Source: Pelagomonas calceolata (Eukaryota > Sar > Pelagophyceae > Pelagomonadales > Pelagomonadaceae). From it: 64,000 nucleotides of DNA. The stretch lies in NCBI GenBank assembly GCA_918797485.1, contig CAKKNE010000004.1, positions 1,054,001 to 1,118,000 on the forward strand, read 5' to 3'. Under the pieces are notes generated by a model. That model was not told where the DNA came from. It did no database searches and saw nothing but the letters and a program-made list of their open reading frames with translations. A program made the position numbers and the translations under genes. Shown here in pieces: positions 30,577 through 61,599 of the stretch. The first letter of the stretch is position 1, and every line of letters starts with the position of its first letter.

Positions 30577-32198
30577 ATGCTCGACGCCGCGACCTGCGAA
30601 GCCGCTCTGGCAACCTCGCCCCACGTCACCGATCACAAAGCCGCGTGCGCCGACCTCGTCACAGCACTTGCAAGGAGACGGCTCTCCGAGGACCACGCGT
30701 TCGCGACGTTCGACGACGTGCAGGACTACGTCGACCTAGCGTGCGTTATTGTGATTGTGGCCTGCGCCGCATTAGCTGCGGGTTTAACGATGGGCGTCAC
30801 TTCTCTAGAGTCCTCGGAACTCCGAGTGATAGTAAGGACCGGCACCGCAACCGAAAAGAGCCAAGCCTCGAAACTCCTACCGCTGGTGGAGAGGAGGCCG
30901 CATCACCAAGTACTAGTAACCCTGTTATTATGCAACTCGCTCGCCAACGAGGCTTTACCTATATTTGTAGACAAACTAGCGCCGACGTGGGCCGCCGTGC
31001 TCTTCTCCGTCGTCTTCGTGCTAGTTTTTGGGGAAATATTACCGTCGGCCATCTTCACGGGTCCCTCGCAGCTGCGGATGGCCGCTCTCTGCGCGCCCCT
31101 CGTGAAATGCGTCCTGGCGGTGTTCTCTCCAATAACCTACCCTATTAGCTTGTTACTCGACCACTACCTGCCCGAGGAAGACGACTGCGAAGAACCAGAT
31201 GAGATCGTGGCGCGGGTCGAAGTGGAACGGGAGCTGGCGCAGCTGCGGGGACGGCCGGCGCCCTTCACGGCGGACGAGTCGAACTTGGTGCGAGGAGTGA
31301 TGGCTCTACGGAGAACGACCGTCGCGGACGTCTACGTTCCTCTCAAGAGGGTCGCTACCGTCTCAGCAAGTGCGCCGTTGACGCTAGAAACGCTGCAAGC
31401 TCTGAGGGATGCCGGGCATAGTAGGATACCTCTCAGGTGGTCGCAGACGCCCGGAGACTGGCGCGATTTCATACTCGTGAAGGAGCTCGTCGGGTGCCGA
31501 CCTGTGCATACATAAAAATTTCGCGGCGCGTTCTTGAATCGTCGCGTATGACCTCCACGCCGACGCGACGCCTGCTCGATAGCGTGGCGATGCCGGTTCG
31601 TCACCGCTCGACGGTCCCCTTGACTCACTGGTTGATTCCACACAGGTGCCAACCAGACCAGACCATCACGCTGTCCGGGACGGGCCGAGCTCTAAGAACC
31701 CCGCATTGGGTCTCCCTCGACCAGTCACTACCGGAGGTTTTAGACCTCTTCCAGCAGGGCCAAAGTCACGTCGCGTTCGTGTCGATGAACCCGCAACGCT
31801 CAGCGAGTTGTAGAGTCCACGACCGCGAAACGCTGGCCGTAGGAATCGTCACTCTGGAGGACGTCGTCGAGGAATTGATCACCGAAGAGATTTACGACGA
31901 GGACGACCGGAGGATCGCCAAAAGGGTCGTCGGCAATTTCATCCTCCGAAAATGGTTCGGGCGGTCGGCGGTCCTGCAGCGGGCGACGCTGTCTGGTCGG
32001 CGGGCGTCGCTCGAACGAGGTTCGGTGTCGCCGCCGTCTCGTAGAGGTTCGGTGCGCGGGAGATTACGGGCGTCGTCGGCGCATGAGGCCTCGGTGGCTT
32101 CTACGGTTGGTCGTGCTTTACGTCGGTTGGGGTCTCAATCGTCGACGGCGGGCGAGCGGACAAGGCTCGTGGTGGATGAAGGCGCGGACGTCGTGTGA
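30577..32198 (+). CDS. CNNM/MAM3-type membrane transporter (DUF21 + CBS pair), 2 exons
   Basis: Exons 30577-31505 and 31646-32198, 493 residues. A luminal N-terminus is followed by the DUF21 membrane domain: VIVACAALAAGLTMGVTSLE, HHQVLVTLLLCNSLANEALP and VFVLVFGEILPSAIFTGPSQ. The LVTLLLCN and GEILP blocks are diagnostic. CBS motifs follow, with MALRRTTVADVYVPLKRVAT and the second half ending GIVTLEDVVEELITEEIYDE. The Ser/Arg-rich tail is probably regulatory. Family members move or sense magnesium and other divalent cations. The intron falls between the two CBS motifs, within CRPV-CQPDQ, and is an introner with a GC donor. Confidence 0.9.
31502..31645 (+). mobile_element. Introner element in the CNNM gene
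   Basis: A 144-bp element with ends CTGTGCATACATAAAAATTT and TTGATTCCACACAG. The flanking 8-mers gtgccgac and gtgccaac match at 7 of 8. The interior shares CTCGATAGCGTGGCGATG and CACCGCTCGACGG-type blocks with the elements at 44757 and 60614. The frame demands that splicing removes 31506-31645 (140 nt), so the donor is GC; a donor at the GT in 31504 would break the frame. Confidence 0.85.
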
Positions 32199-32281
32199 GT
32201 TTATATGCTAAGTATTTGTAATTAATTGCTCGCCGGGTCGCGGGCGCGGAGGACGGCTCGCGAACAGTGTAATTCATTCTT

Positions 32282-33418
32282 CTACGTGAAGACGACGCTC
32301 TGCCCGGCTTCGCGGGCGCGGAGCGCGGCTCGCGCGGTTCGCAAACCCGCATCAACCCCTGTCGTGAGCGGGTGCGCGCCACCCATCACGCGCCGCGCGA
32401 TCCGATTCGCGTCCTCGAGCGTCGTCACGGCCTCGCGCACATCGTCGAGCGTGGCTGCAGGGTCCTTGTAGAGCGCAACCGCGTAACACAACTGCATCCT
32501 AAGCGGGAACTCATTCGAATCTCCAAGAACGCGCCGCGATACGGGCATCGTTTTGCGCAGCAGTGATTTGGTTTCTTCGAAGCGCTCTAGAGCCTGAAGG
32601 GACGCCGCGTAGTTGGTTGCTGCTATGAGGGTTTGCGGATGATCCTTGCCGTGTAACTTTAAGCGTCCGGAGTACACGTCTCGCTCCATGCTTAGAGCCT
32701 CCTCAAGCCGTCCAAGCTGTGCATGTGTTCTCGCAAGATTGCTCTGCACGGCGAGCAGGTTGTGTTCTGATGTGCCATTGCGTCGCTTCATAGAAAACTC
32801 GGCCTCTCTCACGGACAACGACTCTTCGTGGTGACATGCAGAGGATAAACCGTTCGCAAGTACGCCCATCGCCATGCGCCGAGCCTCGTCCGCCTCCGGC
32901 CGACCGACGTACGTTTTCCAGCACGCCCACCCGAGCGCGCATCGCACGACGCCGTGGTAGTGTTGCTCGCACAGGCTACACGTGAACCACCGCCGCCACC
33001 TCTCGTTCAACACCTTGACGCCCAAATTGTTCTCCTCGGCCTCCGCGAACAAGATCTTCGCCTGCTCCGCCAGACACGACACGTGCGCGAAGCCCGCCGT
33101 CCCGCGGCACGCACACATGCGCACGAGGCCCTCCTTCGTCTTCCAGTGCAAGGCCTGCGTGCAGATGTAGCACGTCTGGCCCTTCGTGTCCTCGGCGCAC
33201 GCCTCGACCGCGACCGCGACGGCCTCCTTGTATTTTTTGTCGGCGTTATACTGTTCTGCGTTGCCGCCGCGGTGTATTTTCTTACACATCTGCTTGTGGC
33301 CGCGGCGCCAGTGGTCATGCTGGCAAGTCGAGTCACAATAGCGAACCTTACATCTAACACAGCGGGGCGCGTCGTGGGCCAGTGGGGCGGCGCAGGCGGC
33401 GCAAGTTGTGAGGATCAT
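32282..33418 (-). CDS. MYND finger - RING-CH-like - TPR protein, paralogue 2
   Basis: 378 residues from the ATG at 33418 (MILTTCAACAAPLAHDAPRC). The same layout as paralogue 1, and very close to it through the MYND and RING-CH parts (CKKIHRGGNAEQYNADKKYK, GQTCYICTQALHWKTKEGL). It diverges in the TPR half. The 150 bases upstream of the ATG also resemble those of paralogue 1, so promoter and gene were copied together. A short tandem echo of its 3' coding end (GGGCGCGGAGGACGGCTCGCG) lies just beyond the stop at about 32230-32270. The start is chosen from the match to the paralogues; longer upstream frame is noise. Confidence 0.85.
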   Translation of the reverse strand: MILTTCAACAAPLAHDAPRCVRCKVRYCDSTCQHDHWRRGHKQMCKKIHRGGNAEQYNADKKYKEAVAVAVEACAEDTKGQTCYICTQALHWKTKEGLVRMCACRGTAGFAHVSCLAEQAKILFAEAEENNLGVKVLNERWRRWFTCSLCEQHYHGVVRCALGWACWKTYVGRPEADEARRMAMGVLANGLSSACHHEESLSVREAEFSMKRRNGTSEHNLLAVQSNLARTHAQLGRLEEALSMERDVYSGRLKLHGKDHPQTLIAATNYAASLQALERFEETKSLLRKTMPVSRRVLGDSNEFPLRMQLCYAVALYKDPAATLDDVREAVTTLEDANRIARRVMGGAHPLTTGVDAGLRTARAALRAREAGQSVVFT

Positions 33419-33637
33419 TTTGCGTTGGTTTGGCGTTTGTGAGGCTCGCGCGTCGCGTGTTTTGTGGCTGGACCCAAAAATCGGGTTCACAAATTTGCCG
33501 CAAACGTTCGCCCCGTCGGGTCGTATATCGCGCCGGCGGCGTGCGCAGGACTCGTAACGTTCGTCGCGAGCCGCCTCGGGGGCACCGGTATTGATTGTGA
33601 CCACCCAAGCCAAAATTCCTGGGACTAAAGCGCCGGC

Positions 33638-34210
33638 ATGGGTGCCCTGTTCTCGACGCGACACACACTTCACAGCGACGGCGCCGACGCGGCCCGCGGC
33701 GAGGACCTCGCGTTCTACTTACAACTGGATCTCGACCACGAACCCAAAGACGTCGTCGAATTGGGGGTCGGCGCGTCCGGCGCGGCCCTGCGCGCGGTCC
33801 TCGCGGCGAAGCCGAAGAGCCTCCACGCCCGGGAGCTGTCGGAGAAGAACCGAAAACGGCTGGAGAAGGAATTCGCAAAAGAGGTCGAATCTGGAGTGAT
33901 GACGATCTCGGGCTCCACCACGCCGCGGCCCCTGCCTTTGGATGATGCCAGTGTAGATATCATCTACGGCCTGCACGGCCTCCACTGCATGGAGTCCTTC
34001 GCGGATATCCACGCGGAGATGCGGCGACTCCTGCGGCCCGGCGGGAGACTGGTGTGGGCCTGCGGCTCTTACGGCCCGGCGGGAGAAGGCGGATCGCGCG
34101 TGCTGGCCGGGGCGATGCGCGCGGCGGGCTTCGTCGACGTTAAGATCGACGTCACGCGGCTCCAGGGCGCCGCGAGGTGGACGCCAGTCGTGGGCGTGAA
34201 GGCGCGCTAA
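33638..34210 (+). CDS. Class I SAM-dependent methyltransferase
   Basis: 190 residues from ATG 33638. Motif I is DVVELGVGASGAALRAVLA, the glycine-rich SAM-binding loop. LPLDDASVDIIYGLHGLHCM is the motif around the post-II/III region, and RRLLRPGGRLVWACGSYG is the LKPGG-type motif. These are the hallmarks of UbiE/Methyltransf_11 type enzymes, but the substrate is not evident. It is short and compact, probably a single domain. It is divergent from the MYND gene with 219 bases between. Confidence 0.85.
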   Translation: MGALFSTRHTLHSDGADAARGEDLAFYLQLDLDHEPKDVVELGVGASGAALRAVLAAKPKSLHARELSEKNRKRLEKEFAKEVESGVMTISGSTTPRPLPLDDASVDIIYGLHGLHCMESFADIHAEMRRLLRPGGRLVWACGSYGPAGEGGSRVLAGAMRAAGFVDVKIDVTRLQGAARWTPVVGVKAR

Positions 34211-34328
34211 TCTCGTGCCGCGGCGAAGGCGGTCCAGGCGCCATCCACGCCATCGCCGCGAGCGACGCCGACGCATGTGTATAAACTAAGTAATCCAAGG
34301 CTCGATGGCGTCCGTACGTTAGAATAAA

Positions 34329-35519
34329 TTACTCGCTCCTAACCAACCACAGCGTGTGCCACTCCCGCTCCTCTCTCTTCTCGAGCGTTACCACAATCGT
34401 AGAACCATCAATAGTCCACGAACACCCAGAGGGATCGATGGGCGCAAACAACGGCGACCAGTGAATTAACTGGACGCCATCACACGTCACGGTCAGCGCG
34501 TCGCCTCGACCATAAGAGACCTTGACGCGCGCCTTGAGAGGCTTCTCAGATTCTGGACAAGTCACCACAATCTCGACCTCATCATCAGTCTGCGACCACT
34601 TGTAATTCTCGCCGCTACCGGACTTGACGTCCACGGGCCGCATGGCCTGGGACTGGGCGTGGTGGCTCCTGAGAGACGCGACGCACCAGTCCGAGGCCGG
34701 ATCTAGCTCCGACTCGTAGAAGTCGACGTTCCTTAAACCGGAAGGGCCCGCTTGCGTTCTTCCTACATAAGCGTCGCCTTTTATGGATAACCCGTGCAAC
34801 CCACAAGCAGCACAGAGCTTCTCGGCGCGCGCGTTTCTGGGTCGTTCCCGCAACGCCCCGATGCCGTCGATGTACAACGAGACGTGTCTCCCTGATGAAG
34901 AGTCTCTAGCTAAGGGATAGGCCTCGACGTGGCCCTCTTCCGACGCTAAACTTTGTAGAGTGTCGAAGGACGGCGCCTCGACGCTTTGCTGCGACAGCAT
35001 CTTGCTCAGTCTATCTGTCGTTTCTCGTTCCACGGCGCGCCGGTCCATCACTGTCCGATCGGCAAAGACGGGCTTGAGGAGCGTCAACAGCGTGTCGCCC
35101 TTCGAAATAGGACCGTGCAATCGGGAAACGTTTTCCGTCGGCGTGTGAGGAAGTTTGAGGTACACGAATTCGCCCGCTCCCCGAAGAGGCACGACCTCCT
35201 TCTTTGTAGAACGGTCTTCAGACGTCTCGACCTCGACGCCCCGCTCGCGCAGGTAGGCCAGGCGCTGGTCCGGCGTCAGCGCGTCCTCCTCGTCGTCGTC
35301 GAGTGTGGGTGCTGGTGGTGGCACCGCGGCGCTCGCGACGGTCTCTACGTTCAGCCCTTCGACCGTCGGCTCCTTCTCGCTGGTCTCCGGCGGCGGCGTG
35401 GGCTTCTTCCTCGTCATGTCGCGCACGACGTCGACCTCGACGCCGCGCGACCGCAGGTAGGCCAGGCGCTCGGCGGGCGTCATGGCTTCGGCGTTGGGCG
35501 GTGGCGTGGGGACGTGCAT
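34329..35519 (-). CDS. CS-domain protein (NudC-like C-terminus) with N-terminal repeats
   Basis: 396 residues from the ATG at 35519. Two copies of a short helix lie near the N-terminus: TPAERLAYLRSRGVEVD and TPDQRLAYLRERGVEVE. The middle part is unknown and includes SLYIDGIGALRERPRNARAE and a Cys pair (KLCAACGLHG). The last roughly 100 residues form a CS domain of the NudC/p23 class (YKWSQTDDEVEIVVTCPESE, SWTIDGSTIVVTLEKREERE, HTLW). Such domains assist Hsp90 or bind clients. The motif copy at 35720 is 201 bases upstream. Confidence 0.75.
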   Translation of the reverse strand: MHVPTPPPNAEAMTPAERLAYLRSRGVEVDVVRDMTRKKPTPPPETSEKEPTVEGLNVETVASAAVPPPAPTLDDDEEDALTPDQRLAYLRERGVEVETSEDRSTKKEVVPLRGAGEFVYLKLPHTPTENVSRLHGPISKGDTLLTLLKPVFADRTVMDRRAVERETTDRLSKMLSQQSVEAPSFDTLQSLASEEGHVEAYPLARDSSSGRHVSLYIDGIGALRERPRNARAEKLCAACGLHGLSIKGDAYVGRTQAGPSGLRNVDFYESELDPASDWCVASLRSHHAQSQAMRPVDVKSGSGENYKWSQTDDEVEIVVTCPESEKPLKARVKVSYGRGDALTVTCDGVQLIHWSPLFAPIDPSGCSWTIDGSTIVVTLEKREEREWHTLWLVRSE

Positions 35520-35719
35520 TTTGTAGCTGTGGCTGCACGAATGCGGCGTGTAATTAGCTGGATAGCTCGCAGAGGCCGATCGTGTGAGGGCGGCGCTTGA
35601 GCGGCAGTAGCGGTGCAGCTCTGTATCGCCGGCGGTAGCAGCGATCAAGAACGGCAGCTTGCGACCCTGAGATTCAGCATGCGACGCGTAATGCTGGTCG
35701 TACTCGTAGGAGAGTGCTT

Positions 35720-35743
35720 GCTAGTGTGTTACATGCCGCTAGC
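35720..35743. promoter_or_regulatory. Palindromic promoter motif in a divergent spacer
   Basis: GCTAGTGTGTTAC, ATG, CCGCTAGC. It is 201 bases from the minus ATG at 35519 and 111 from the plus ATG at 35854. Confidence 0.6.
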
Positions 35744-35818
35744 TTTGCTTGCGTTTTGCTGCAATTGCGTGGCTGCAGCGGAGCTTGAGTCGCCATAGCT
35801 CTCAGTGCTGGCCTATAC

Positions 35819-35834
35819 TCTATATATATATACA
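35819..35834 (+). promoter_or_regulatory. TATA-rich tract
   Basis: CTCTATATATATATATACAT-type tract 20-35 bases upstream of the ATG at 35854. It is unusual in this GC-rich setting. It could be a TATA element with a very short leader or a simple dinucleotide repeat. Confidence 0.3.
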
Positions 35835-35853
35835 TAGCGTCAGCAGCACATCA

Positions 35854-41272: not shown

Positions 41273-41325
41273 AAAAAGCTTTTGCATCGCAGGGCTGCCC
41301 CCGAGCGAATTTGACCATATACAAG

Positions 41326-42468
41326 ATGATCCTCACGCAGTGCGCCGTCTGCGCCACCGACCTTGGGCTAACCTTGGGCAAGAAATGCGGCCGCTGCAGC
41401 ACACGCTACTGCGGGCCCGAATGCCAGAAAAAACACTGGGAAGAGGGCGGGCACGACAAACTCTGCAAACTGATAAAGAAATCAGGCGGCGCCGAGCAGT
41501 ACAACGCAAATAATAAGTACGCGGAGGCAGTGACAATCGCGGCGGAGGCGTGCGCCGAGGACACGAAGGGCCAGACGTGCTACATCTGCACGCAGGCCCT
41601 CCATTGGAAGACGAAGGAGGGCCTCGTGCGTGGATGCTCGTGCCGCGGGACGGCGGGCGTCGCGCACGTATCGTGCTTGGTGGAGCAGGCGAAGATTTTG
41701 GTCGCGGAGGCCGAGGAGAACAATTTGGGCCACGATGCGTTTAATGCGAGGTGGCGGCGGTGGTGCAGCTGTAGCTTGTGCGAGCAAGAGTACCACGGCG
41801 TCGTGAAGTGTGCGCTCGGGTGGGCTTGCTGGAAGACGTACTTGGGGCGGCCGGAGACGGACGAGGTTCAGGGCATGGCGATGAGCATGCTTGGGAACGG
41901 TTTATTCTTTGCTCATAACTACGAAGACGCGTTGTCCGTGTACGAGGCTATGTTGCATATGCTGCGGCGCCTTGGCGCAGCAGAAGAACACATTCTCATC
42001 GCGCAGAGCAGTCTCGCGAGCACGTATCGAGCGCTTGGGCGGAATGAAGATGCCTTACAGATGGATCGAGATATATATAGCGGACGTTTGAGGCTCAACG
42101 GCGAGGAAAATGGACATACCCTCCTTGCAGCCAACAACTACTCGACGTCCCTTATTGGCCTAAAGCGCTTCGAAGAAGCGAAGTCGCTGCTGCGCAGAAC
42201 GATGCCCGTGGCACGACGCGTCCTCGGGGATAATAATGACATGACGCTCAAGATGAGGGTGATTTACGCGGAGGCGCTCTACGAAGACGAGGGCGTGACG
42301 CTCGGCGATCTCCGCGAGGCCGTGACGACGCTCGAGGACGTGGGTCGGATCGCGCGGCGCGTGCTCGGTGGCGCGCATCCGCTCGCAGTGGGGATTGAGG
42401 ACGCCCTGGGAAACGCGCGAGCCGCACTCTCCGCCAGCGAAACGTCGCCGACGAGCAACAACGCCTAG
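41326..42468 (+). CDS. MYND finger - RING-CH-like - TPR protein, paralogue 3
   Basis: 380 residues from ATG 41326. MYND finger: CAVCATDLGLTLGKKCGRC, then STRYCGPECQKKHWEEGGH. RING-CH part: CYICTQALHWKTKEGLVRG, CSCRGTAGVAHVSCL, CSLCEQEYHG. TPR repeats follow (LLAANNYSTSLIGLKRFEEA and others). It is the most divergent of the three full paralogues in the MYND region but keeps the linker AEACAEDTKGQTCYIC. Opposite strand to the other two. The gene ends 32 bases from the convergent NDOR1 gene. Confidence 0.85.
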   Translation: MILTQCAVCATDLGLTLGKKCGRCSTRYCGPECQKKHWEEGGHDKLCKLIKKSGGAEQYNANNKYAEAVTIAAEACAEDTKGQTCYICTQALHWKTKEGLVRGCSCRGTAGVAHVSCLVEQAKILVAEAEENNLGHDAFNARWRRWCSCSLCEQEYHGVVKCALGWACWKTYLGRPETDEVQGMAMSMLGNGLFFAHNYEDALSVYEAMLHMLRRLGAAEEHILIAQSSLASTYRALGRNEDALQMDRDIYSGRLRLNGEENGHTLLAANNYSTSLIGLKRFEEAKSLLRRTMPVARRVLGDNNDMTLKMRVIYAEALYEDEGVTLGDLREAVTTLEDVGRIARRVLGGAHPLAVGIEDALGNARAALSASETSPTSNNA

Positions 42469-44491: not shown

Positions 44492-45494
44492 CTAGAGCGC
44501 GCGCAGCAGCTCGCTCACCTCCGCGGCCGACGCCAAATTTGATGGAGGTGATTCCACAACAACTCTTTGATCAGGCACGGGCTGCTCCCACGACGGCCGG
44601 CGCGGCGGATCTTTTGACGTAAACTTTGAAAAATCAAACAGCGTGTCCCGGGCAAAGTCCATGAGCTCGCCGTTCGGTTCGTACTCGTCCGTCTGATCGA
44701 GCAGCGCCTGGATCGCGGCCACGCCCTCGAAGAACTCGTCCCCCGAGCCCTTGAGCCTGTGTGGAAATCAAATTGCGATGCTGCTCGATGGCGTGGCAAC
44801 GCCGGTTCCTCACCACTCGACAGAGCCAGGCACCCGGCGCACTGGTTGATTTCCACACAGCTTTGAGCTTCTTCGCGGCCCGGTCGGCCGCGAGGTACGC
44901 GTCCGCCAGGAAGCGCTTCGGGAACCCTTCCGGTGATTGAGTTCGCTTCTTCGACACGATCGGTTCGTCGTCGTCACTCGAGGAGGACGAGGCGTCGAGG
45001 TCCACCTCTAAGCGACTGAGGGCCATGCGTACCAATCTCAAATCGTGCTGCGCGTGGCGCTCTCTACTACCAATCTTGGCCAGCTCGTGGTCGTTCTCTG
45101 GAACAATTGAGAGCTTCTTTCTCAGGAAGATGTCCGCATCTCGAGCGACGGCCGCTCGTAACAGGGCGAGGCGCCTCCTGATCCTGTCGGTGTGCGGATC
45201 GCGCGGCCGCGATTCGAGGCCTCGGAGCAACGCGTCGCGGCGCGCCTCCAGCGCCTCGGCCCTGTGGAGCGCTTCGGCCGCCGCGTCCTTCCAGGGCGCG
45301 GTCGCGGCGCCATCTACTAATTCAGAGAGGACCGCGGCGCCGGCCGCCGGCGGAATGGGTACTTCGGCCTGTTCTAAAGTGTCAGTGAGGACGGGCTCCG
45401 TCGTGGCGTAGGGGTCGACGGGCGTGACGGGCGGCGGCGGCGCGTGGCGGGGCATGCGGACGTAAGGACGGCCGTCGCAGTCCAAATCAGACAT
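44492..45494 (-). CDS. Unknown helical protein (2 exons)
   Basis: Exons 45494-44857 and 44756-44492, 300 residues. The ATG at 45494 has the strong context CCACCATGTC. The N-terminus is P-rich (MPRHAPPPPVTPVDPY). A long amphipathic helical region with many Arg, Glu and Leu follows (ALHRAEALEARRDALLRGLE, LRLVRMALSRLEVDLD), then DASSSSSDDDEPI, an acidic patch with likely CK2 sites. Exon 2 (LKGSGDEFFEGVAAIQALLD) also matches nothing I know. The 1003-base gene is broken by an introner. Confidence 0.6.
44757..44860 (-). mobile_element. Introner element with perfect 15-base inverted ends
   Basis: A 104-bp element. Both ends read CTGTGTGGAAATCAA (inverted). The flanking 8-mers ccttgagc and ctttgagc match at 7 of 8, a clear target duplication. 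Splicing of 44856-44757 (GT-AG, 100 nt) restores the frame, leaving LKAV-LKGS. This is the best-preserved copy in the window. Confidence 0.9.
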
Positions 45495-47076: not shown

Positions 47077-48022
47077 ATGTTCCGCAGCCAATACGACACC
47101 GATGTCACGGTGTGGAGCCCCCAGGGCCGCCTCCTCCAGGTCGAGTACGCCATGGAGGCCGTCAAGCAGGGCTCCGCGTGCTTAGGGTTGGTCGGCAAGG
47201 ATGGGGTGGTCTTAGCTGCCTTAAAAAGGCAGCCGAACGAGCTGAGCGGTCACCAGAAAAAACTTCTCAAGATCGACGACCACTTAGTCATTGCGGTCGC
47301 TGGTTTAAATGCCGACGCGAGGACTTTGGCGAAAGTCATGAGGACGGAGTGCCTCAATCATAGATATGTGTATGGCGCCCCGCTCCAAGGCGCCCGACTC
47401 GTACAGGACATCGCGGACAAGTACCAGCGGTGCACGCAGACTTATGTCAGAAGACCCTATGGCGTCGGGTTGTTGGTGGCGTGCTGCGACGCGACGGGGC
47501 CGCACTTGTACGAGACGTGTCCGTCGGGCAATTTCAGCGAGTTTGTCGCCGTCGCGATTGGCGCTCGAGCCCAGTCGGCCAAAACTTACTTAGAGAAGCA
47601 CCACAAGACCTTCAAGGACACGCCGGTCGAGGAGCTGTGTACTCATGCTCTCCAAGCACTGGCCTGTGTGGAAATCAACCGGTGTGCCGCTATCTCGACA
47701 CCGCGGCCCTCGTTTTGGCTCAAACTCGGACACGACCTCCGAGACCCACGCGACCGTATCCAGAGAGCAGCACCTCACTCCCACCCCGAGAGACCCCGAA
47801 TCGAAGGGCGCTTGAAGTTTTATTTCCCCACAGGCATTGGCCGGTTGCGTCGCTGGCGACAAGGAACTCGACGCGGCGGCCGCGTCCCTAGCCGTCGTGA
47901 CTGCCGATGGGCAGTCGCGCTTGATTGAGGACGCGGAGGTGCAGAAGTACCTCGACCTGGTGGAAGTGGAGAAGACGGCCGCCCAAACGGAGGGCATGGA
48001 GCTCGAGGGGGCGTCGGCCTAG
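47077..48022 (+). CDS. PSMA1: Proteasome subunit alpha type-1 (alpha6), 2 exons
   Basis: Exons 47077-47667 and 47834-48022, 259 residues. It opens MFRSQYDTDVTVWSPQGRL and YAMEAVKQGSACLGLVGKDG, the alpha-subunit N-helix and first strands. The best match is alpha6, which reads MFRNQYDNDVTVWSPQGRL-type sequence in other eukaryotes. TYVRRPYGVGLLVACCDATG and GARAQSAKTYLEKHHKTFKD follow. It forms part of the outer ring of the 20S proteasome. The intron sits in the helix HALQALAC-ALAGCVAG, where four extra residues would be created by the insertion. Confidence 0.95.
47664..47833 (+). mobile_element. Introner element in the proteasome gene
   Basis: A 170-bp element with ends CTGTGTGGAAATCAACC and TTTTATTTCCCCACAG. 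The flanking 8-mers gcactggc and gcattggc match at 7 of 8. Splicing of 47668-47833 (GT-AG, 166 nt) restores the frame. Its interior differs from the elements at 31502, 44757 and 60614, so it may be another subfamily. Confidence 0.85.
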
Positions 48023-53052: not shown

Positions 53053-53238
53053 TTAGGTGTGGGGCGATTCGCGCGCGCGGAGCGCTGCTCGCGCCCCTTG
53101 TAGGGCTCGCACAATCGAACCTACGGTCGGGTTTGCGCCACCGAGCACGCGCCGCGCGATCCGTTCCGTGTCCTCGAGCGTCCTCACAGCCTCGCGGAGA
53201 TCGTCGAGCGTGGCGGCGGGGTCCTTGAAGAGCGCCCG
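53053..53238 (-). pseudogene. 3' fragment of a fourth MYND/RING-CH/TPR paralogue
   Basis: The minus strand reads ALFKDPAATLDDLREAVRTL, then TERIARRVLGGANPTVGS, then ARAALRARESPHT and a stop. This matches the C-terminus of paralogue 2 (LYKDPAATLDDVREAVTTLE). Nothing of the MYND, RING-CH or first TPRs remains. It joins directly to the Cys-rich fragment on the other strand. Confidence 0.75.
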
Positions 53239-53885
53239 CGCATCCGCGCACCGCGACGGTTTTTCTTGGGGCCACGAAGTCGAGGTCCGGGAGGTGACAC
53301 AAACAACACACACAGGTCAAGGAGTGGACGAAGAAGGGCCGCAAGGCCCTGTTCGAAGGTTCTAGGGATTGCGCGTGGGTCGCCGAAGATCCCGAGAACC
53401 GGTGTGGGCACCGCGGCGAGGTCACGGCCAAGGAGGTCTGTCGCAAGGCTTGTGGATTCCCCGGTGGTGTTGATAGACCGACCTTCGAGGTCGAGTCCGA
53501 GGCGCCCACCTACAACGCGGATCCGACGCTGCGAGGCGGCTTCGGCGGTTTAGATGCGGCTGCCGTCACCTCTTTAGCGGTCGGCGCCCCTGCGTCTGAC
53601 TCACCTTCGTCCGTGCACCGCGATGGCGTCTTAGAGGTCCCGTCCCCTCCGGTCCGGAAGGTGACAAAAAAAACAACACAGGTCAACGCGCTCGAGAAGA
53701 TGAAGAAGCTCGCCAAGTCGGCGCCGCGGTCCTGCGACTGGGTCGCGGCGGATCCTGGGCATCGTTGTGACGAGCGGGGCACCGTCGCGGCGGAAGACGC
53801 GTGCCACGCGGCGTGCTACGCGCAGGAGCTCAAGAACCTGAAGCGCGAGACGTGGAGCGCGCAGCAGCCGCTCCGGGCGCCGTGA
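53239..53885 (+). pseudogene. 3' part of a Cys-rich repeat protein gene, 5' end lost
   Basis: Two units of about 340 bases each contain an SxHRDG-type linker, a KVT-x-TTQV stretch and a Cys module: CAWVAEDPENRCGHRGEVTA and CDWVAADPGHRCDERGTVAA, each followed by a C-x3-C ending. Such modules occur in secreted stramenopile proteins. The frame is open from 53298 to the stop at 53885 without a good ATG. The first unit has one extra base in a CA tract compared with the second, so it is shifted before 53298. The gene lacks its signal peptide and 5' exons, so I call it a truncated host gene. A remote 5' exon outside the usual spacing cannot be ruled out. Confidence 0.55.
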
Positions 53886-53988: not shown

Positions 53989-54060
53989 GTAGACTCTCAT
54001 GCGGCTGGTTGGCGGCGTCGACGGCGTCGAGGCGGCGTGGCATCGCAGCAACGCCGGCGA
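53989..54060. repeat. Dispersed inverted-type repeat (GTCGACGCCGTCGA core), copy 2
   Basis: The counterpart of 49903-49970, in opposite orientation. Reads TGCGTAGACTCTC, then GGCGTCGACGGCGTCGAGGC, then GTGGCATCGC. Confidence 0.5.
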
Positions 54061-54142
54061 GCCGACGTGGTCCCACGACGCCGTCGATGCGACGAGCTAC
54101 GGCAGTGCTTCCCCCACGCCCGAGAACACAAGCTACTACTCC

Positions 54143-54883
54143 TTAGCTATACGCCTTCTCGTACGACGGCAGCTTCTTCACGCGGTCGAGCCACGCCTCG
54201 AGCGCCGGAAACTCCGCGAGCCAGCCCATCGCCCGCGCGTTGCCTAGCGGTTTGGCGAGGACGAAGTCCGCGGCCGTCGGGCCTTCTATCCCACCTGCTG
54301 ATAGTAACCAAGGTCCAGTGGGATCGAGCGAATGTTGTCTGATGAGTAGTGGCGCGACCGTCTCGACGAAGGTCTTTTGCGCTTCTTCCACGTACGTAGC
54401 GTCCTGCTCCTCGATCGTTTTGAGGTAGGCTTTCACAACTACCGGAAAAACGGTAGTCCCAGTGTAAAAAATGGACTCCCACATCTTACATCTTTGAGTG
54501 GAGGACCACGCGGCGCACTCGCCCGTAACCTCCAGGAGTAAAGATATAATAGCGCCGGACTCCGTGATCAACGAGCCCGTGTAGGACGCGCCTCCTCGTA
54601 GCTTGAGCGCCGGGACGCTTCGTTTGGGATTCAGAGCTCCATATTTCACATCGGTGCGGACGTGCTCGAACGACAGCGTCTCTATCTGTATGTCCTCTTG
54701 CAATTGTAGCTCATGGATCAACTGGACGACCGGCGCGCTGCTCGTTTTTGGGATGTGGTACAAGACACTGTCTTCGAGGGTTTCCATCGCGTTTCGCGCG
54801 TACTGGCGCCTGAACGCAGCGCTGGCGGCTCGAAGGGATGCGGTGGTAATGGTACGAGAGCACAGCAAAGCCGCTGCGAGCAT
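54143..54883 (-). CDS. Glutathione S-transferase-like protein
   Basis: 246 residues from the ATG at 54883; a second ATG at 54787 (METLEDSVLYHIPKTSSAP) starts right at the thioredoxin-fold domain. N-domain: LYHIPKTSSAPVVQLIHELQ, NPKRSVPALKL and ITESGAIISLLLE, the usual cis-Pro and ESxAI blocks. C-domain: GPTAADFVLAKPLG, the helical part. The first 32 residues could be a targeting peptide. The palindromic motif sits only 24 bases above 54883 but 120 above 54787, which favours the shorter form. Confidence 0.8.
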   Translation of the reverse strand: MLAAALLCSRTITTASLRAASAAFRRQYARNAMETLEDSVLYHIPKTSSAPVVQLIHELQLQEDIQIETLSFEHVRTDVKYGALNPKRSVPALKLRGGASYTGSLITESGAIISLLLEVTGECAAWSSTQRCKMWESIFYTGTTVFPVVVKAYLKTIEEQDATYVEEAQKTFVETVAPLLIRQHSLDPTGPWLLSAGGIEGPTAADFVLAKPLGNARAMGWLAEFPALEAWLDRVKKLPSYEKAYS

Positions 54884-54906
54884 TTATGGCTGCAAGCGCT
54901 GCACAG

Positions 54907-54930
54907 GCTAGTGTCTTACAGGACGCTAGC
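54907..54930. promoter_or_regulatory. Palindromic promoter motif in a divergent spacer
   Basis: GCTAGTGTCTTAC, AGGA, CGCTAGC. It is 24 (or 120) bases from the GST start and 239 from ATG 55169. Confidence 0.6.
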
Positions 54931-55168
54931 AAGCTCTCAGAGCAAAAAAAGCTCAAGGTGGGCTACCGGGACGGGATCTGTCGCCAATTTTATCTACAAA
55001 CACGCTGTCGACGCACAGCAAGCCACTTGCTGCCGCCAAATTGCCGCCCATCAGCGGACACAGCTCCAGCCTCTCTGGGAGCTGAGCCGCTGCCGCCAGT
55101 CGTCGCGGATCAGACGGCACAGCCAAAAACAACCAAAGCGCTCGCGCACGCCAGTCGCGCCACACAAA

Positions 55169-56854
55169 ATGGCAGTAGTCGTCGTAGGCTCGGCCAACGT
55201 CGACCTCGTCGTCAACTCCCCTAGGTTCCCGAAACCAGGAGAAACTTTAATAGGGAGCCGCTTCGAGCAGCTGTTTGGCGGCAAAGGGGCGAACCAAGCC
55301 GCCGCGGCCGCTTTATTAGGTAGTCCCGTGCGCGTCGTCATGAGGGTAGGAAGGGACGACCTCGGCCAGGCGACGCGCAAGAACTTCGAGAGGTTAGGCA
55401 TCGACGCGAATCGCGTCGTTGACACGAGGGACGCGGCGACGGGCGTCGCATTGATAACAGTCGATTCCAATGGGGAGAACACGATCGTCGTCGCGAGTGG
55501 CGCAAACGCGAAGCTCACGCCGGAGGACGTCGCGGAGACGGTCTTCGACGGCGCCTCTGTGATACTGACGCAGCTCGAGGTTCCTGTCAGTACGAACATC
55601 GCCGCTCTGAGAAAGGCCAAGGCTAGAAAAGTGTTGACGGTATTCAATGCCGCGCCGGCGCCCACTTCGCCGTTGCCGGACGAGATTTGGAAGTTGTGTG
55701 ACGTCTTGTGTGTGAATGAACCGGAGTTGCAGCTTTTGACCGGTAGGAAAGTCGAGAACGATTCAGAAGCGTGCGGCGAGCTGCTGAAGAGGGGCGTCGG
55801 CGCCGTGTTGCTGACGCGGGGCCGTCGAGGATGCCTGCTGGTCCGCGAGCAAGGTTCCATCAGTTGCAGTGTACCCGAGGCTTTGCAGAGTACGCCGGTT
55901 GACACGACCGGCGCCGGCGACGCCTTTTTAGGCGCGCTAGCCCACTTGGTCGCGAGCGGGTCGACGCTCGAAGCTGCCTTGCCAGGCGCTGTGGAAGTGG
56001 CATCGACGTCCGTGCGTAGAAGAGGAGCCCAGGCCTCCTACCCGACCGCCGCGGATCTGGGGTGGGCGAAACGGCCGCCGGCGCCGCCCTCGCCGACCCG
56101 TTTCGGGGACTCGCGACGGCCGTCGGTAGCTGGTGCCCTTGCGGCCGCTACCGAAGCGGTGGACAAATTTGTGGCGTCTGGTAGCGTCGTCGGCATCGGC
56201 TGCGGTTCGACCGTCGATCACTGCGTGCAGCTCATCGCCGAGCGACTCGCTTCTGGTGCTTTGAGGGATGTGACGGCCATGGCGACTTCCGAAGCTACTG
56301 AAAGACGCTTACGCGAATTTGGAATCCCGCTGCTACCGCCGGACTCGGACAAAGCCGTCGACGTGGCCCTGACGGGCTGCGACGGCGTGTCCTCGTCCAA
56401 AGACGTCGTCAAGGGCGGCAAGGGCGCCATGCTCCGAGAAAAATTGGTCCGGGCGGCGGCGTCGCGGTGGGTCGTGATTTGTGACGAGTGCAAGCGGAGC
56501 GAGGGGCTCGGCGTCGACTTTCCCGTGCCCGTGGAAGTCGCGCCGGCCTTCCATCAGCGGACGTTGCGAAGGCTCGCGAAGTTGACGGGTGCGGACGCTA
56601 GATTGCGCTTGGGTTTGGCGCCGGCCGGCCGGCCCGGCTCTGATATGAGCGGAAAACCGTTCGTCACAGACAACGGGAACTATGTGGTGGACCTGTTCTT
56701 CAGCGAGCCTCTAGGAGACGTCTGGCTCATGGCGTCGCAGCTCGATGCGTGCCCGGGGGCGGTCGAGCACGGGCTCTTCCCGGCGTCGATGCGGCCGGAC
56801 GACCCCGTCGTGCTCGTCGGTGGGAGTGATGGGGGCGTGGAGCGGATGGAATAA
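55169..56854 (+). CDS. Fused ribokinase - ribose-5-phosphate isomerase A
   Basis: 561 residues from ATG 55169. Residues 1 to about 300 are a PfkB ribokinase: MAVVVVGSANVDLVVNSPRF, FGGKGANQAAAAALLG, VNEPELQLLTGR and the catalytic DTTGAGDAFLGALAHLV. Residues about 325-561 are RpiA: VGIGCGSTVDHCVQLIAERL, MATSEATERRLREFGIPLL, KGGKGAMLREKLVRAA, FPVPVEVAPAF and FVTDNGNYVVDLFF. The ribokinase makes ribose-5-phosphate and the isomerase converts it to ribulose-5-phosphate, so the fusion would pass product on. The usual DGADE of RpiA reads TGCDG here, so one conserved Asp is replaced; the Lys and Glu of KGGxxALLREKIV are kept. No targeting signal is seen, so it is probably cytosolic. Confidence 0.9.
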   Translation: MAVVVVGSANVDLVVNSPRFPKPGETLIGSRFEQLFGGKGANQAAAAALLGSPVRVVMRVGRDDLGQATRKNFERLGIDANRVVDTRDAATGVALITVDSNGENTIVVASGANAKLTPEDVAETVFDGASVILTQLEVPVSTNIAALRKAKARKVLTVFNAAPAPTSPLPDEIWKLCDVLCVNEPELQLLTGRKVENDSEACGELLKRGVGAVLLTRGRRGCLLVREQGSISCSVPEALQSTPVDTTGAGDAFLGALAHLVASGSTLEAALPGAVEVASTSVRRRGAQASYPTAADLGWAKRPPAPPSPTRFGDSRRPSVAGALAAATEAVDKFVASGSVVGIGCGSTVDHCVQLIAERLASGALRDVTAMATSEATERRLREFGIPLLPPDSDKAVDVALTGCDGVSSSKDVVKGGKGAMLREKLVRAAASRWVVICDECKRSEGLGVDFPVPVEVAPAFHQRTLRRLAKLTGADARLRLGLAPAGRPGSDMSGKPFVTDNGNYVVDLFFSEPLGDVWLMASQLDACPGAVEHGLFPASMRPDDPVVLVGGSDGGVERME

Positions 56855-56991
56855 CTGGGCATTTGTGTTTTTGCGTCGTCGTTTCGTCGACGGCGTCCAG
56901 CAATGGGCCCACGACACTTCCCACGCCGTGCGCGCTGGCCAGCGGACTTGCCAGCGGAAGTGCCAGCGGAAGAACAATAGACTTCATAAAG

Positions 56992-59900
56992 TTACCCACC
57001 CCCCATCATCTCAGCAGCCTTGACCTCCTCATCCAACTCCACCCAGGACTCCTCGAAGAGCGACCCGTTGATGATGCGCTTCGCCATCGTCAGCTTGTTC
57101 TCTTTGGTAGCTGGGTGGTTGCACAGGTCGATGGTTTTGGCGGTAGCCTTTGAGGAGTCAGAACACCACGACTCGCACCAGAGCCAGTCCTGCGGTAAGG
57201 AGAAGATGGGGATTTGGGGCTGGGCGTAATTGGGCAAATCTTGGTCGAGATTTGAGAGCGACGCCGGGTCCCGCGACAGCTGGTCGTAGACCATCCTGAG
57301 TTGGTCGCCGACGCCTCTTCTACGAAACACCTCGAGATCGACGACATACAGCGCCGAGATGTGGTACGGCTTGCCTCTCAAATGATCCTTCCAGTAGCCG
57401 GACCGCCAGAACTGGTAGCCCAACGTTTCTTTCCTGCTATCACAGAACGGCGTGTACCCGTAGGCATGGCCTTGTAAATCAAGATCCCAGAGCTCCCGGA
57501 GATTGCCCCGCACCACTTGATCCGCGTCCACATATATAATCTTCGGCACATCAAGGGGAAACAGCACATCCAGGAACAAAATCTTGTAGCCCCAGATGAT
57601 CCTTTGTTTTACCGTTTGCGTTCTGAGCCACTCCGGCCACTTGTACGTTACATATGCCACATCAAAACCTTTCGACTCACCAAGGGCTCTTGCTCCGTCC
57701 TTGAACGCTGGTGTCAGGTAGTTCTCGAAGAGCCAGAACTTGATCGGTCCCGTCGTGCGCTTCCGGACGGAGAGCATCATGATCTTGAGCATCCTTTCAT
57801 ACAAGGAACCCGTCGCCAGAGAAAACACATGGATCGTATCCTTCGACCGCCTCTTCTTCTTCTTTGAGCTAAAGAACCACGACGACTGATCGTCTTCGCC
57901 GAGTAATTCCACGTTCTCCTGGCCCTTGCGCTTCCGCACGCGCAACTGGTGCGCAGACGCTTCGAAGTCACTGACCACGATATCGACGCCGTCCGACGCT
58001 TCGGCGTCCGCGTCGAACGAGGGACCGTACCACGACCGCGCAAACCCGACGGGCTCGACCTGGACCGTCTCGTACAACTCCTCGGACCTTGTATTCGAGG
58101 CGAGTTTTATTTTCCACGCGCCCGGTTGACTGCGGAGCTGGAAGTACCCGAGATTCTGCATGACCAACGTATCGGAAGATGTCCCTTCGAGCTGGATTTG
58201 CAGGCCGTTCGGCGGCCTCGAATCGACCACATCATAGCACTGGCCCATCACGACTAACGACTTCAGCTCATAAACGATCCGCGCGTCGCCGGCGCGCATG
58301 TTGTCCGGGTCACTGGAAGCGGAGGCCATCTGCGCGTCCCAGGCCTCCGGCGTATCTACCCTCAGTGTCAACACTTGGTGCTTCGGCAGGGACGCGAACT
58401 TGGCCCGCGGCGCGCTGTCGACGTCGAGCGCGAAGCGGTAGTATTTCTGGAGTGGCATTTCCTGGAGCTCCGGGTCCGGCGCGAGCACCAACCTCACTTT
58501 CAGTCCCAGGACATCTCGCAGAGCTAGGAGCACCGGAGCGGCTCTCTGGGCAGCTTCGCTCAACGGATCAAAAATGGCCGTCGCTTGCGGTGCGATGCCG
58601 TCGGACGTCAGTACCAATTGTTCGACGCCCTGTTCCTTCAACATGGCCTCTATGAGACCCTCTACATCCGATCTAGGCTCTAGGGAACGCTGACCGGCGT
58701 ACCGTCTCGCCGCGCCGATCGCGTCGAGGACTCGTGGACGGTCCTCGGAGTCAAAGGCCTCGGCCAGTTTCGACGCATATAACGCCTCACTCCTCGCGAG
58801 GACGACGAGGTCGCCGTCGTTTGTGGGGGCGTTCGCTTTCCTACTGTTGGCAAAGGTACAAGTAGTGCCAGGTTCGCAGGGGCCCCTGAACGTCACACCA
58901 TCTGTCGATGTCTTCTTGGAGAAGTAGGCTTCTCTGAGGGCGTCTACCGTAGTACAGTGTTTCGAGATGTAGTGGCCCGTCTCATCTGAATCGGACGAGG
59001 GATTGTGCACTACGGAAACGCGCGCGGCCCCCTCCTTTTGTGAAGCATGCTTCAGTACTAGATAAGCCGCCCGCACGCCACTAACAGAAGACAGGTCCGT
59101 CGCCAAGACGATCGACACGTTGCCTTGCGGGTTCCCGGGGACCCAGTCGTATTCTGACCAGTGGTACTCGTGTTTTTCTAGTTCTAAGATGCGCGAGTGC
59201 CGTTCTACGAGATGCGTGGCCTTCTCCTTGGACGAAGCGCCTCCTAGCAACGCCTTGCCGTAGATCGACTTCGTGCTATCAGTGATCACCTTCCTCCGTA
59301 CTAACTGCTGGAGCCGCGCCTGCTCTTGGCCTAGAGCCGGCAGCAGGTTGTTCTGCAAATCTAAGCCGCTGTCCAACACGAGACCATTCAAGGCCACCGT
59401 ACCCTCAAAGGACAAGCCTTTCTGACTTACAAAGCGCCGTTGCTGGGCGACCTGTAGAGCTACTTCGTTAATCACTTCTTCGTTGGTCAGCAGCCGCCGC
59501 AGCTGCTTCTCAGATGCCTTTTTAGTAGACTCGTAGCCTGGTACAGGGTCCTCCTCACTCATAGAGATGGCCTCGCCGTACGCGGAGATGACGCTCTCGA
59601 GCGTCGGCGCCTCGCCGTACTCGCGGTTCGACGCGAGTTCCACGAGAAAGGCCCACGCCGTTTTGGGACCCCTCGCGAGCTTCGCCAACGAACAGGCGGC
59701 GGCGACCTGGGTCCCGATGGAACTCGGATCGAATTGTTTTATGACCTGCTGCTCGTCGACGTCCTGAGCTTCATCAGAGAAGACGTCACCTGACGCTTCA
59801 TCGCTCAGAGACGCGTCGCCGAGCACAAAGGCGACTCGGACCGGATAGCCCTGGCGCAGCATGGCGTGGGCCACGTAGATCGCGTTCAGGGCTTCATCGG

Positions 59901-61599
59901 TAGACGCATCTAACACGAGTAGAGCCGTGTACAAATTCTTCGCAACGGAAGTGAGCTGCCACGACGGGTACAGGAGCTGCTGCACCGACGGCGGCCAGTC
60001 CTTGTACTCCGGATCCTTCTCGAGGTTGTTGGCGTAGGTGATCGAGCCCTTCGAGCCGCTCAGCAGGTCGACCCGCGTCGTCGACCGCTGTTTCTCGTCA
60101 GTGGCGAGGATTAAGTCTCGCCGTTTGTTAGACTCATCTACATCGGTAGTGAGGACGTCTAGCGCTGCCAACTGCCGCAACGACGAAGCTTCGGACCGAA
60201 TACCTTGCAGCAAAGCATGTAAGGAGAACGTCGGCGAGCCGACGTCGTGAGCAGTCCCGCCTAAAAACACCAGAGCTCGCCCCGTCAAGCCGGAGTGCAT
60301 GCTATACGCGTGCGCCGTGGCTGCCGCCTCCCGCAGGTCGTCGCGGACGCGCCTCGCTGACAAACCAGCAGCATGTCTAGGAAAGTCCTGCGACAGATCT
60401 TTCAGCGTCCTCAACGGGTCCTGGGCGTCGATGGTCGCCTGCGTCGCCTGCAAGGATAGGTCCCGCAGCTTCCACACTTTTAACGAGTCCGTGGTCTCGG
60501 ACGCGAGTTGCGTCCTCAGTTCACTCAACTCCTGCTTCAGGTCGGGCCGCCTTTGAGCTAGCGTCGCGAGGTAGACGCCGCCGACCTCCTCGCCCTCCTC
60601 GAAGGACGTCGACCTGTGCATAAATCAAAATTTTACGGCGCGTTTCCATCGACGCGGCTCGATGGCGTGGCGATGTCGGTTCCTCGCCGCTCGACGGAAC
60701 CAGCGCGGCCACGTCGTCGCCGAGAAAGGACTTAGTGAAGAATTATCGGGTGCGCCCGACGCACTGGTTGATTTCCACACAGTAGTAGACGCTTGCGTGG
60801 TCGTCGTTTCTGTTGTACTATCGTCCATGTTCTTGTACTCGAGGTCCTTGATGTCCAGATTGGCCCCAAAGGCTTGTAAATGCGTTTGATTGGAAGAGCC
60901 TCGCAAATGAGACGCGTGGCGCAGGAAGTAGGTCGCTTCTGTCGCGGAGCACGCGTCGTGCCATGCTCGGAACTGTGAAGACGTGACGTCTACGATGAGT
61001 TCAATAGTCACGTCCGAGCCGTCTTCAGAGAAGGGCGTCTCCGAGCCCAACAACCGCGGTGTTTGATCGCACTGTTGAGATGTGCAGACCTGCTCCGCGG
61101 CCTTGGCTACGAGTGCAGAGACGTCCGATGCCTTACAAGCGACGTGGCGGCCGCTCGGGCCATATATGATCGCTCGTGTAGACTCGACGTCGCCACCAGG
61201 ACAAGTAGGTGCTTGCGACGCTAGCGACCGGTGGGCTTCGAGCCTCGGAGCGTAGGTCCGCACGGCCAGCGCCATCCGCAACAACGCGTGGGCGAGGCCG
61301 TCCAATTTCTTCTCCGCGGCGTCGAGCGCGATGGAGGCCATCTCCTCGTAGCCTTCACCGTCGTACGTGGAAGCTGACGAGGCCGCGCGGATCTTCTCTT
61401 TCGTCGACGCATCCCCAAAACCGTCGCCGATGGCCTCCACAAAAGACCAGTAGACGCTCCTCCCTTCGCCCGCCAGGAACTCGGCCGCCTCGAGGAGCGG
61501 CGAGACGGCGCGCGTCGGCCAGGGCGCTCTTATTGATACCTCTACGGAGCGGGCTGTGGCGTGCGTCGCTATCAGTAGAACTGCGACCGCGCGCGCCAT
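56992..61599 (-). CDS. UGGT: UDP-glucose:glycoprotein glucosyltransferase (2 exons)
   Basis: Exons 61599-60779 and 60613-56992, 1480 residues. MARAVAVLLIATHATARSVE is the ER signal peptide, then VSIRAPWPTRAVSPLLEAAE, as in other UGGTs. Four thioredoxin-like folding-sensor domains make up most of the length. The GT24 catalytic domain at the C-terminus holds FLDVLFPLDVPKIIYVDADQ (DxD), then GHAYGYTPFCDSRKETLGYQ, SALYVVDLEVFRRRGVGDQL, and NLDQDLPNYAQPQIPIFSLP, then WLWCESWC. It re-glucosylates misfolded glycoproteins in the ER for calnexin-type refolding. No clear KDEL-type ending is present (ends AAEMMGGG). The intron near residue 274 is an introner. Confidence 0.95.
60614..60782 (-). mobile_element. 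Introner element in the UGGT gene
   Basis: A 169-bp element with plus-strand ends CTGTGCATAAATCAAAATTT and TTGATTTCCACACAG. The flanking 8-mers acgtcgac and tagtagac match at 5 of 8. The interior shares CTCGATGGCGTGGCGATG and TTCCTCGCCGCTCGACGG with 44757 and 31502. On the gene strand the GTGTGG end comes first, so the intron (60778-60614, 165 nt) is GT-AG. The frame is restored as QASTTV-STSF. Confidence 0.9.

What the first reader, a model, noticed from the sequence alone, without database searches (positions are those of the whole stretch)
31502..60782. A family of frame-preserving introners interrupts at least six genes
Six elements of 57-170 bp (1951, 6351, 31502, 44757, 47664, 60614) sit inside genes that otherwise break into two frames. 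All have CTGTG/CACAG-like ends; four or more share a GTGTGGAAATCAA end, and the 44757 copy has perfect 15-base inverted ends. Five carry recognisable 8-base flanking duplications (7/8, 7/8, 7/8, 5/8, 5/8). In each gene the frame closes only when splicing keeps the first four bases of the element. 8 + 4 = 12 nt, so each insertion adds four codons and never shifts the frame. Introners as DNA-transposon-derived introns are known from Aureococcus and Micromonas; the arithmetic seen across these six sites is what I find striking.
Basis: partly seen in the sequence, partly recalled or inferred. Interest (0 to 1): 0.8.

Follow-up and report, generated by a model that had tools for sequence, protein, structure and literature searches.

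The report
Transposon-made introns that splice out perfectly
Short mobile DNA elements in this marine alga have inserted into coding genes and become introns; the sequence indicates that each is removed exactly, borrowing one splice site from the duplicated target, so the claimed four-codon addition does not hold.

Summary
The six elements are real. They belong to a high-copy family of miniature inverted-repeat transposons (full copy about 203 bp, 15-base inverted ends, 8-bp target-site duplications, TSDs) that makes introns. The genome matches Pelagomonas calceolata, where introners were already reported.

The "8 + 4 = 12" rule is not supported. Frame arithmetic cannot distinguish an intron starting four bases inside the element (+12 nt) from one starting at the first base of the upstream TSD copy (net 0). 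TSD composition decides. In 63 of 63 sampled elements with a TSD of at least 6/8, the upstream copy in gene sense begins GT (47) or GC (16); read antisense, 19 of 63 do. The sense 3' end is AG in 63 of 63, while the matching base at the 5' end is free. Genome-wide, 1,495 of 1,562 exact ends fit (about half would by chance); 67 do not. With a donor inside the element, TSDs of any sequence should survive.

So intron = upstream TSD copy + element, leaving mRNA length unchanged: the mechanism reported for Aureococcus introners (recalled and second-hand). The +12 arithmetic is also in print (Gozashti 2022, Fig. 2F legend). No RNA data were available.

The parts
1943..2007 (+). Old introner (element 1951-2007) plus upstream TSD copy 1943-1950; predicted intron GT...AG
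   Evidence: TSD 4/8, upstream copy starts GT, acceptor AG, net-0 frame open; gene unnamed (no Pfam match). Not in the 80-element sample.
6351..6429 (-). Diverged introner (element 6351-6421) plus upstream TSD copy 6422-6429; predicted intron GC...AG on the minus strand
   Evidence: TSD 5/8, upstream copy in sense starts GC, acceptor AG; right end placed by hand at the GTGCACTG; gene unnamed. Not in the 80-element sample.
31494..31645 (+). Introner (element 31502-31645) plus upstream TSD copy 31494-31501; predicted intron GT...AG in a CNNM-family gene
   Evidence: TSD 7/8; Pfam CNNM 2.8e-24.
44757..44868 (-). Introner with perfect 15-base inverted ends (44757-44860) plus upstream TSD copy 44861-44868; predicted intron GC...AG, minus-strand gene
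   Evidence: TSD 7/8, upstream copy in sense GCTCAAAG; gene unnamed.
47656..47833 (+). Introner (47664-47833) plus upstream TSD copy 47656-47663; predicted intron GC...AG in the proteasome alpha-1 gene
   Evidence: TSD 7/8. The net-0 product aligns without a gap over 239 residues to proteasome alpha type-1 (3unb_E, 6.4e-75), junction at residue 206.
60614..60790 (-). Introner (60614-60782) plus upstream TSD copy 60783-60790; predicted intron GT...AG in a UGGT-type glucosyltransferase gene
   Evidence: TSD 5/8, upstream copy in sense GTCTACTA; Pfam Glyco_transf_24 1.3e-130, Thioredoxin_12 and Thioredoxin_13.

Best explanation
The elements are non-autonomous, MITE-like DNA transposons. Each inserts into an exon with an 8-bp target duplication. 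The intron that results is the upstream TSD copy plus the whole element. Its 5' splice site is the first two bases of the TSD (GT in about three quarters, GC in about one quarter), taken from the host exon. Its 3' splice site is the AG at the element's end. Because the ends are inverted repeats, either end can supply that AG, so insertions in either orientation can be spliced. The downstream TSD copy stays in the exon and restores the original reading frame and protein, so the net change is 0 nt. Insertions whose target octamer does not begin GT or GC in gene sense are lost by selection. Shown here from DNA: the family, TSDs, frames, orientation, and the GT/GC and AG constraints. Inferred: the actual splicing, the selection, and the transposase.
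For: Upstream TSD copy in gene sense begins GT or GC in 63 of 63 elements with TSD >= 6/8 (47 GT, 16 GC); read antisense 19 of 63; Fisher p = 6.5e-19. In the contiguous sequence not picked for element ends (window plus C1:200001-400000) it is 16 of 16. Gene strand was called from coding statistics of 210-base flanks, which on one side include the 8 bases of one TSD copy. Sense 3' end is AG in 63 of 63; the same inverted-repeat position at the sense 5' end is T in only 44 of 63. Genome-wide, 1,562 exact ends: 987 have GT/GC at -8, 1,002 have the complementary AC/GC directly outside, 494 both, so 1,495 fit and 67 do not; at the antisense rate of 0.30 about 760 would fit neither. Ends that cannot supply AG (CA/CC/CG in place of CT) must be donor-side: 112 of 124 have GT/GC at -8 against 987 of 1,562 for CT ends. 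These genome counts include the duplicated chromosome ends twice. Element orientation relative to the gene: 25 same, 21 opposite, 17 undecided of 63, so the GT/GC rule follows the gene and not the transposon. Intron phase 25/10/25 for phases 0/1/2 (60 elements) follows GT frequency by codon position 0.073/0.023/0.067 (upstream flanks of 38 elements). Guerin 2022 gives an intron-length peak at about 210 bp: 203 + 8 = 211, whereas a +4 donor predicts 199.
Against: No RNA data were available. Mismatches between the two TSD copies are 22 of 37 synonymous (22 of 37 at third codon positions), more than the roughly 0.43 expected if only the downstream copy is coding (0.27 is the computed fraction for random changes; 0.43 is a hand estimate from it). 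This hints at some constraint on the upstream copy. Of the 17 elements with TSD <= 5/8, 11 begin GT or GC and 6 do not, and 5 are not in the expected frame; I take some of these for false pairings but did not resolve each. 67 of 1,562 genome-wide ends and 12 of 124 variant ends do not fit. One of 63 elements is out of the expected frame (c1 142636, weak coding score).
Confidence: 0.93

Rival explanations
1. One reading: the element carries both splice sites, the intron starts after its first four bases, and every insertion adds 8 + 4 = 12 nt (four codons).
For: Frame closes, but this follows for net 0 as well. A published legend describes exactly this for an Aureococcus MAG, with a four-residue difference from an orthologue. 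GT at element positions 5-6 is common at the donor end (position 5 is G in 63 of 63, position 6 T in 55 of 63). The excess of synonymous TSD mismatches could mean the upstream copy is coding.
Against: With this donor the TSD could begin with any dinucleotide, yet 63 of 63 begin GT or GC in gene sense. Positions 5-6 are equally conserved at the acceptor end, where they would have no role. Three of six window sites would need GC there, and one sampled element would need GA (L033). It would put four extra residues into proteasome alpha-1 at a place where that protein otherwise aligns gap-free.
Confidence: 0.03
2. Tandem donors: both sites are used, net 0 being major and +12 minor, giving in-frame isoforms that differ by four residues.
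For: A second candidate donor exactly 12 nt downstream of the first (GT at element positions 5-6 in 55 of 63); synonymous excess in TSD mismatches (22 of 37).
Against: No donor-specific conservation at element positions 5-6.
Confidence: 0.1
3. The GT/GC start is a target preference of the transposase and not a splicing requirement.
For: TSD-based preferences are common among DNA transposons (general knowledge).
Against: The rule follows gene sense, not element orientation (25 same, 21 opposite, 17 undecided; 63 of 63 GT/GC), and is not seen read antisense (19 of 63).
Confidence: 0.03
4. Chance ORF interruptions or assembly artefacts, not introns.
For: None found.
Against: 1,562 exact 15-base ends genome-wide, reversed control 0; TSDs far above null; 62 of 63 in the frame predicted by removal of element + 8.
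Confidence: 0.005

Closest known systems
Introners of Aureococcus anophagefferens (Huff, Zilberman and Roy 2016, Nature 538:533; paper not held; abstract recalled; second-hand passages in PMC10228655, PMC9860276, and PMC7789003)
   Same: Pelagophyte; short DNA transposons with inverted ends and direct repeats; one splice site carried, the other co-opted from the duplicated target; no change in mRNA length; both orientations; phase bias that follows codon-position bias of the co-opted sequence (partly recalled). The 8-bp TSD in A. anophagefferens is recalled.
   Different: Here the inverted-repeat sequence is CTGTGTGGAAATCAA; whether it is homologous to the Aureococcus family was not tested. 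PMC7789003 calls the Aureococcus splicing motifs canonical, whereas about a quarter of the donors here are GC.
Introner family 4 of Aureococcus sp. TARA_AOS_82_MAG_00129 (Gozashti 2022, PMC9860276, Fig. 2F and 2G legend and methods passage seen; figure not seen)
   Different: The authors read both splice sites as carried, with +12 nt. In the present genome the TSD composition says net 0. Whether the two families are the same could not be tested here; their example may deserve re-reading.
Introners noted in Pelagomonas calceolata (Guerin 2022, PMC9481584, passages seen)
   Same: Very probably the same genome; introners inferred there from an intron-length peak at about 210 bp
   Different: The passages seen give no inverted-repeat, TSD or splice-site description ('inverted repeat', 'target site' and 'GC-AG' occur 0 times in the main text; supplements not available).
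Symbiodinium microadriaticum introners (Gozashti 2022, Fig. 2B legend)
   Same: 3' splice site carried, 5' splice site co-opted from the TSD, inverted ends
   Different: 4-bp TSD.

Membership tests
Introner (intron-generating transposable element) | Many similar copies acting as introns at unrelated coding sites | tested here: met
   80 elements in the sample, 74 joined in one single-linkage similarity group; coding frame continuous in 62 of 63 with TSD >= 6/8 and 12 of 17 with less
Introner (intron-generating transposable element) | Terminal inverted repeats and target-site duplications of a DNA transposon | tested here: met
   15-base inverted ends; 56 of 80 with TSD 7-8 of 8
Introner (intron-generating transposable element) | Removed from mRNA by the spliceosome | not testable with these tools
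   No RNA reads; inferred from frame and splice dinucleotides
Aureococcus-type introner (Huff 2016) | One splice site carried by the transposon | tested here: met
   Sense 3' end AG in 63 of 63; the equivalent base at the 5' end is free (T in 44 of 63)
Aureococcus-type introner (Huff 2016) | The other splice site co-opted from the duplicated target, no change of mRNA length | tested here: met
   GT/GC at the TSD start in 63 of 63 and 1,495 of 1,562 ends genome-wide compatible; the mRNA itself was not seen, so the length part is inferred
Aureococcus-type introner (Huff 2016) | Insertion in both orientations relative to the gene | tested here: met
   25 same, 21 opposite, 17 undecided of 63
Aureococcus-type introner (Huff 2016) | Preference for nucleosome linkers | not tested
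   No nucleosome data used
'+12' introner (Gozashti 2022, Fig. 2F) | Both splice sites inside the element, so the TSD sequence is unconstrained | tested here: not met
   TSD start is GT/GC in 63 of 63
hAT superfamily DNA transposon | 8-bp TSD with nTnnnnAn bias (bias recalled) and a matching hAT transposase | tested here: inconclusive
   8-bp TSD met; A at TSD position 7 in only 15 of 56; two hAT-like ORFs found (below the curated cut-off), with only loose, about 4-mismatch likenesses to the inverted repeats nearby

The most novel reading that the evidence does not exclude
Each introner brings two in-frame donors 12 nt apart (GT/GC at the TSD start, usually GT at element position 5), so insertions are born with a built-in in-frame isoform switch of +4 residues. 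The published '+12' introner example (Gozashti 2022, Fig. 2F) would then be either the minor isoform or a gene-model choice of the inner GT where the real donor is GC.
Probability: 0.12. Interest if true: 0.5.

Novelty: new member of a known kind. Interest (0 to 1): 0.27.

Why it matters
It is a clean worked example of how transposons make introns, with at least about 780 copies (1,562 exact ends, two per copy at most, duplicated chromosome ends counted twice) in a compact genome, and it shows that splice-site choice can be read from DNA alone through target-duplication composition. It also shows that frame arithmetic alone cannot separate +12 from 0, which may bear on a published example of introners said to add four amino acids.

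Tried and rejected
The donor at element position 3 (GTGTGG) was rejected: with the terminal AG it leaves +10 nt and breaks the frame, since the continuous-frame result requires a retained length divisible by three. The donor at element position 5 (+12) was rejected on TSD composition. A hAT origin was pursued because ends of the CAGTG type occur at the donor end and TSDs are 8 bp. One PF05699 match over its cut-off and one PF04937 match below its cut-off were found. In the 7.1 kb around the first, the loose pattern (up to 4 mismatches) gave six likenesses to the ends and the exact core pattern none. In two 2-kb pieces beside the second (the 1.4 kb between them was not fetched) there is one 4-mismatch likeness, against 0.66 expected in shuffled sequence, without a partner end. 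I do not count these as ends. MULE gave nothing. KDZ gave nothing, but that search rang in no control genome either and is uninformative. A scan of public viral contigs for the exact 15-mer gave 43 stretches with one match each; among them were five loosely paired ends, none with a matching target duplication. I read these as chance; no expectation was computed. The TSD-mismatch codon test did not decide between models and is reported as mild counter-evidence. Huff 2016 could not be checked in its own text (not held). Passages of PMC12768974 (mirusvirus introns), PMC11782384 and PMC12730881 were looked at and added nothing decisive. Literature searches were (listings).
Full report
Setting. The window lies in G000:C4:1054001-1118000, a genome of 32,445,274 bases in 8 contigs, with 63% GC in the window. 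This fits Pelagomonas calceolata RCC100 as described in PMC9481584: six nuclear contigs of 32.4 Mb, one plastid and one mitochondrial contig, 63.6% GC (passages seen). That paper reports a 393-kb duplication at the ends of contigs 1 and 5; paired positions such as C1:86633/C5:86697 and C1:104385/C5:104444 look like the same thing. The species name is inferred. The paper attributes a peak of intron lengths near 210 bp to introner elements.

Observation. The six elements are present. The shared 13-mer GTGTGGAAATCAA occurs 859 + 872 times in the genome, reversed control 0. I sampled the window, 200 kb of contig 1 and 60 small loci around listed copies. Pairs of ends with limited mismatch gave 80 elements; 56 of 80 have a TSD identical at 7 or 8 of 8 positions, where random pairings of the same octamers give 0.6%. 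The rest are 7 with 6/8 and 17 with 5/8 or less. Of the six window elements, four are among the 80; 1951 and 6351 were too diverged for the sampling rule and were examined separately. 74 of 80 join one single-linkage similarity group. Full copies are about 203 bp, and many shorter copies look like internal deletions of it. In the sample 28 elements have both ends exact, 31 one and 21 none.

Frame. A coding model trained on 145 long ORFs of the same sequence (in-sample frame accuracy 84% on 120-base pieces) was used to call gene strand and frame on each side. When the element plus 8 bp is removed, the frame is continuous in 56 of 56 elements with TSD >= 7/8, 6 of 7 with 6/8 and 12 of 17 with less. 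In the stricter set where both flanks score above 3 it is 34 of 34, 4 of 4 and 8 of 12. This is what exonic insertion with an 8-bp duplication must give, whatever the splicing. It requires only that the number of extra nucleotides left in the mRNA be a multiple of three.

What decides. Under the alternative the donor is the first dinucleotide of the upstream TSD copy. Read in gene sense, that copy begins GT or GC in 56 of 56 elements with TSD >= 7/8 (42 GT, 14 GC) and in 7 of 7 with TSD 6/8 (5 GT, 2 GC), 63 of 63 in all against 19 of 63 read antisense (Fisher p = 6.5e-19). Three of the 63 have strand margins below 4. In the 17 elements with TSD <= 5/8, 11 begin GT or GC. In the contiguous sequence not picked for element ends it is 16 of 16. 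All six window sites agree. The acceptor AG at the sense 3' end is present in 63 of 63, while the same inverted-repeat position at the sense 5' end reads T 44, G 8, A 7, C 4.

Genome-wide test. Every exact CTGTGTGGAAATCAA end should be either donor-side (GT/GC eight bases out) or acceptor-side (the complement, AC/GC, directly outside). Of 1,562 ends, 987 satisfy the first, 1,002 the second, 494 both; hence 1,495 satisfy at least one and 67 neither. At the antisense rate of 0.30 about 760 would satisfy neither. Ends whose second base is not T cannot supply AG and so must be donor-side: 112 of 124 have GT/GC at -8. Of the 100 of these that one search lists, 24 are GC and 76 GT by my count. These counts take the duplicated chromosome ends twice; at least four of the 100 listed are such duplicates.

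Mechanism. The intron is the upstream TSD copy plus the element. Since the ends are inverted repeats, either end can provide the AG; accordingly 25 elements lie in the same orientation as the gene, 21 opposite and 17 could not be assigned. Intron phases are 25/10/25 for phases 0/1/2 in 60 elements, following GT frequency by codon position in the upstream exon flanks of 38 elements, 0.073/0.023/0.067; GC frequency is nearly even, 0.124/0.102/0.126. The net-0 product of the 47664 gene aligns without a gap over 239 residues to proteasome alpha type-1, junction at residue 206. Other genes: CNNM family at 31502 and a UGGT-type glucosyltransferase at 60614; the genes at 1951, 6351 and 44757 gave no Pfam match.

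Against. No RNA was available. TSD copies differ at 37 positions in 60 elements, 22 of them synonymous; random changes would be 27% synonymous, and a mixture of a free upstream and a constrained downstream copy about 43% by hand estimate. The excess is small but could mean that the upstream copy is partly constrained, for example as a donor or through occasional +12 splicing. 67 of 1,562 ends and 12 of 124 variant ends fit neither expectation.

Known or new. The mechanism (one splice site carried, the other co-opted from the target duplication, both orientations) is that reported for Aureococcus and Micromonas introners by Huff et al. 2016 (recalled; second-hand in PMC10228655 passages, and PMC9860276 passages). 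Thus neither reading is new as a kind. In this genome the +12 reading is not borne out by the DNA. Whether that published example is the same family, and whether it would fail the same test, could not be examined. The mobilising transposase was not found.

Noticed in passing
window 11154, 13806(-), 16066, 18190, 19209(-), 35720, 41260(-), 44387, 51019, 54907: A second dispersed short repeat, GCTAGTGTCTTAC...CGCTAGC: 7 full-length matches in the window with up to 3 mismatches and none in 100 shuffles; 869 + 872 exact 13-mers genome-wide, reversed control 0. 6 of 10 window copies lie outside stop-to-stop frames of 250 aa or more. Role unknown.
   Followed up: partly
window 22063-22818, 32309-33422, 41322-42444, 53065-53241; also L089: Related sequences repeated at four places in the window, 74-87% alike over long stretches. 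A reading frame of L089 holds a cysteine-rich stretch that resembles an MYND zinc finger (by eye), suggesting a lineage-specific gene family.
   Followed up: no
L043 118-248 and 632-683, L055 620-819, C1:228370, window 31502 and 60614: A second end type (like CAGTGCATAAATCAA / TTGATTTATGCACAG) occurs, and some elements have one end of each type (window 60614, C1:228370), as if two related families recombined or shared a transposase.
   Followed up: partly
C4:4499982-4500185 (L089, L090) and C5:1222172-1222657 (L134, L135 beside it): Two hAT-like transposase ORFs (721 and 832 aa open frames; the second below the Pfam cut-off) without clear introner ends nearby.
   Followed up: partly
genome-wide, 24 of 100 listed donor-side ends: About a quarter of the introner donors are GC and not GT (listing, my count; 16 of 63), a high share of predicted GC-AG introns that gene predictors may misplace.
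   Followed up: partly
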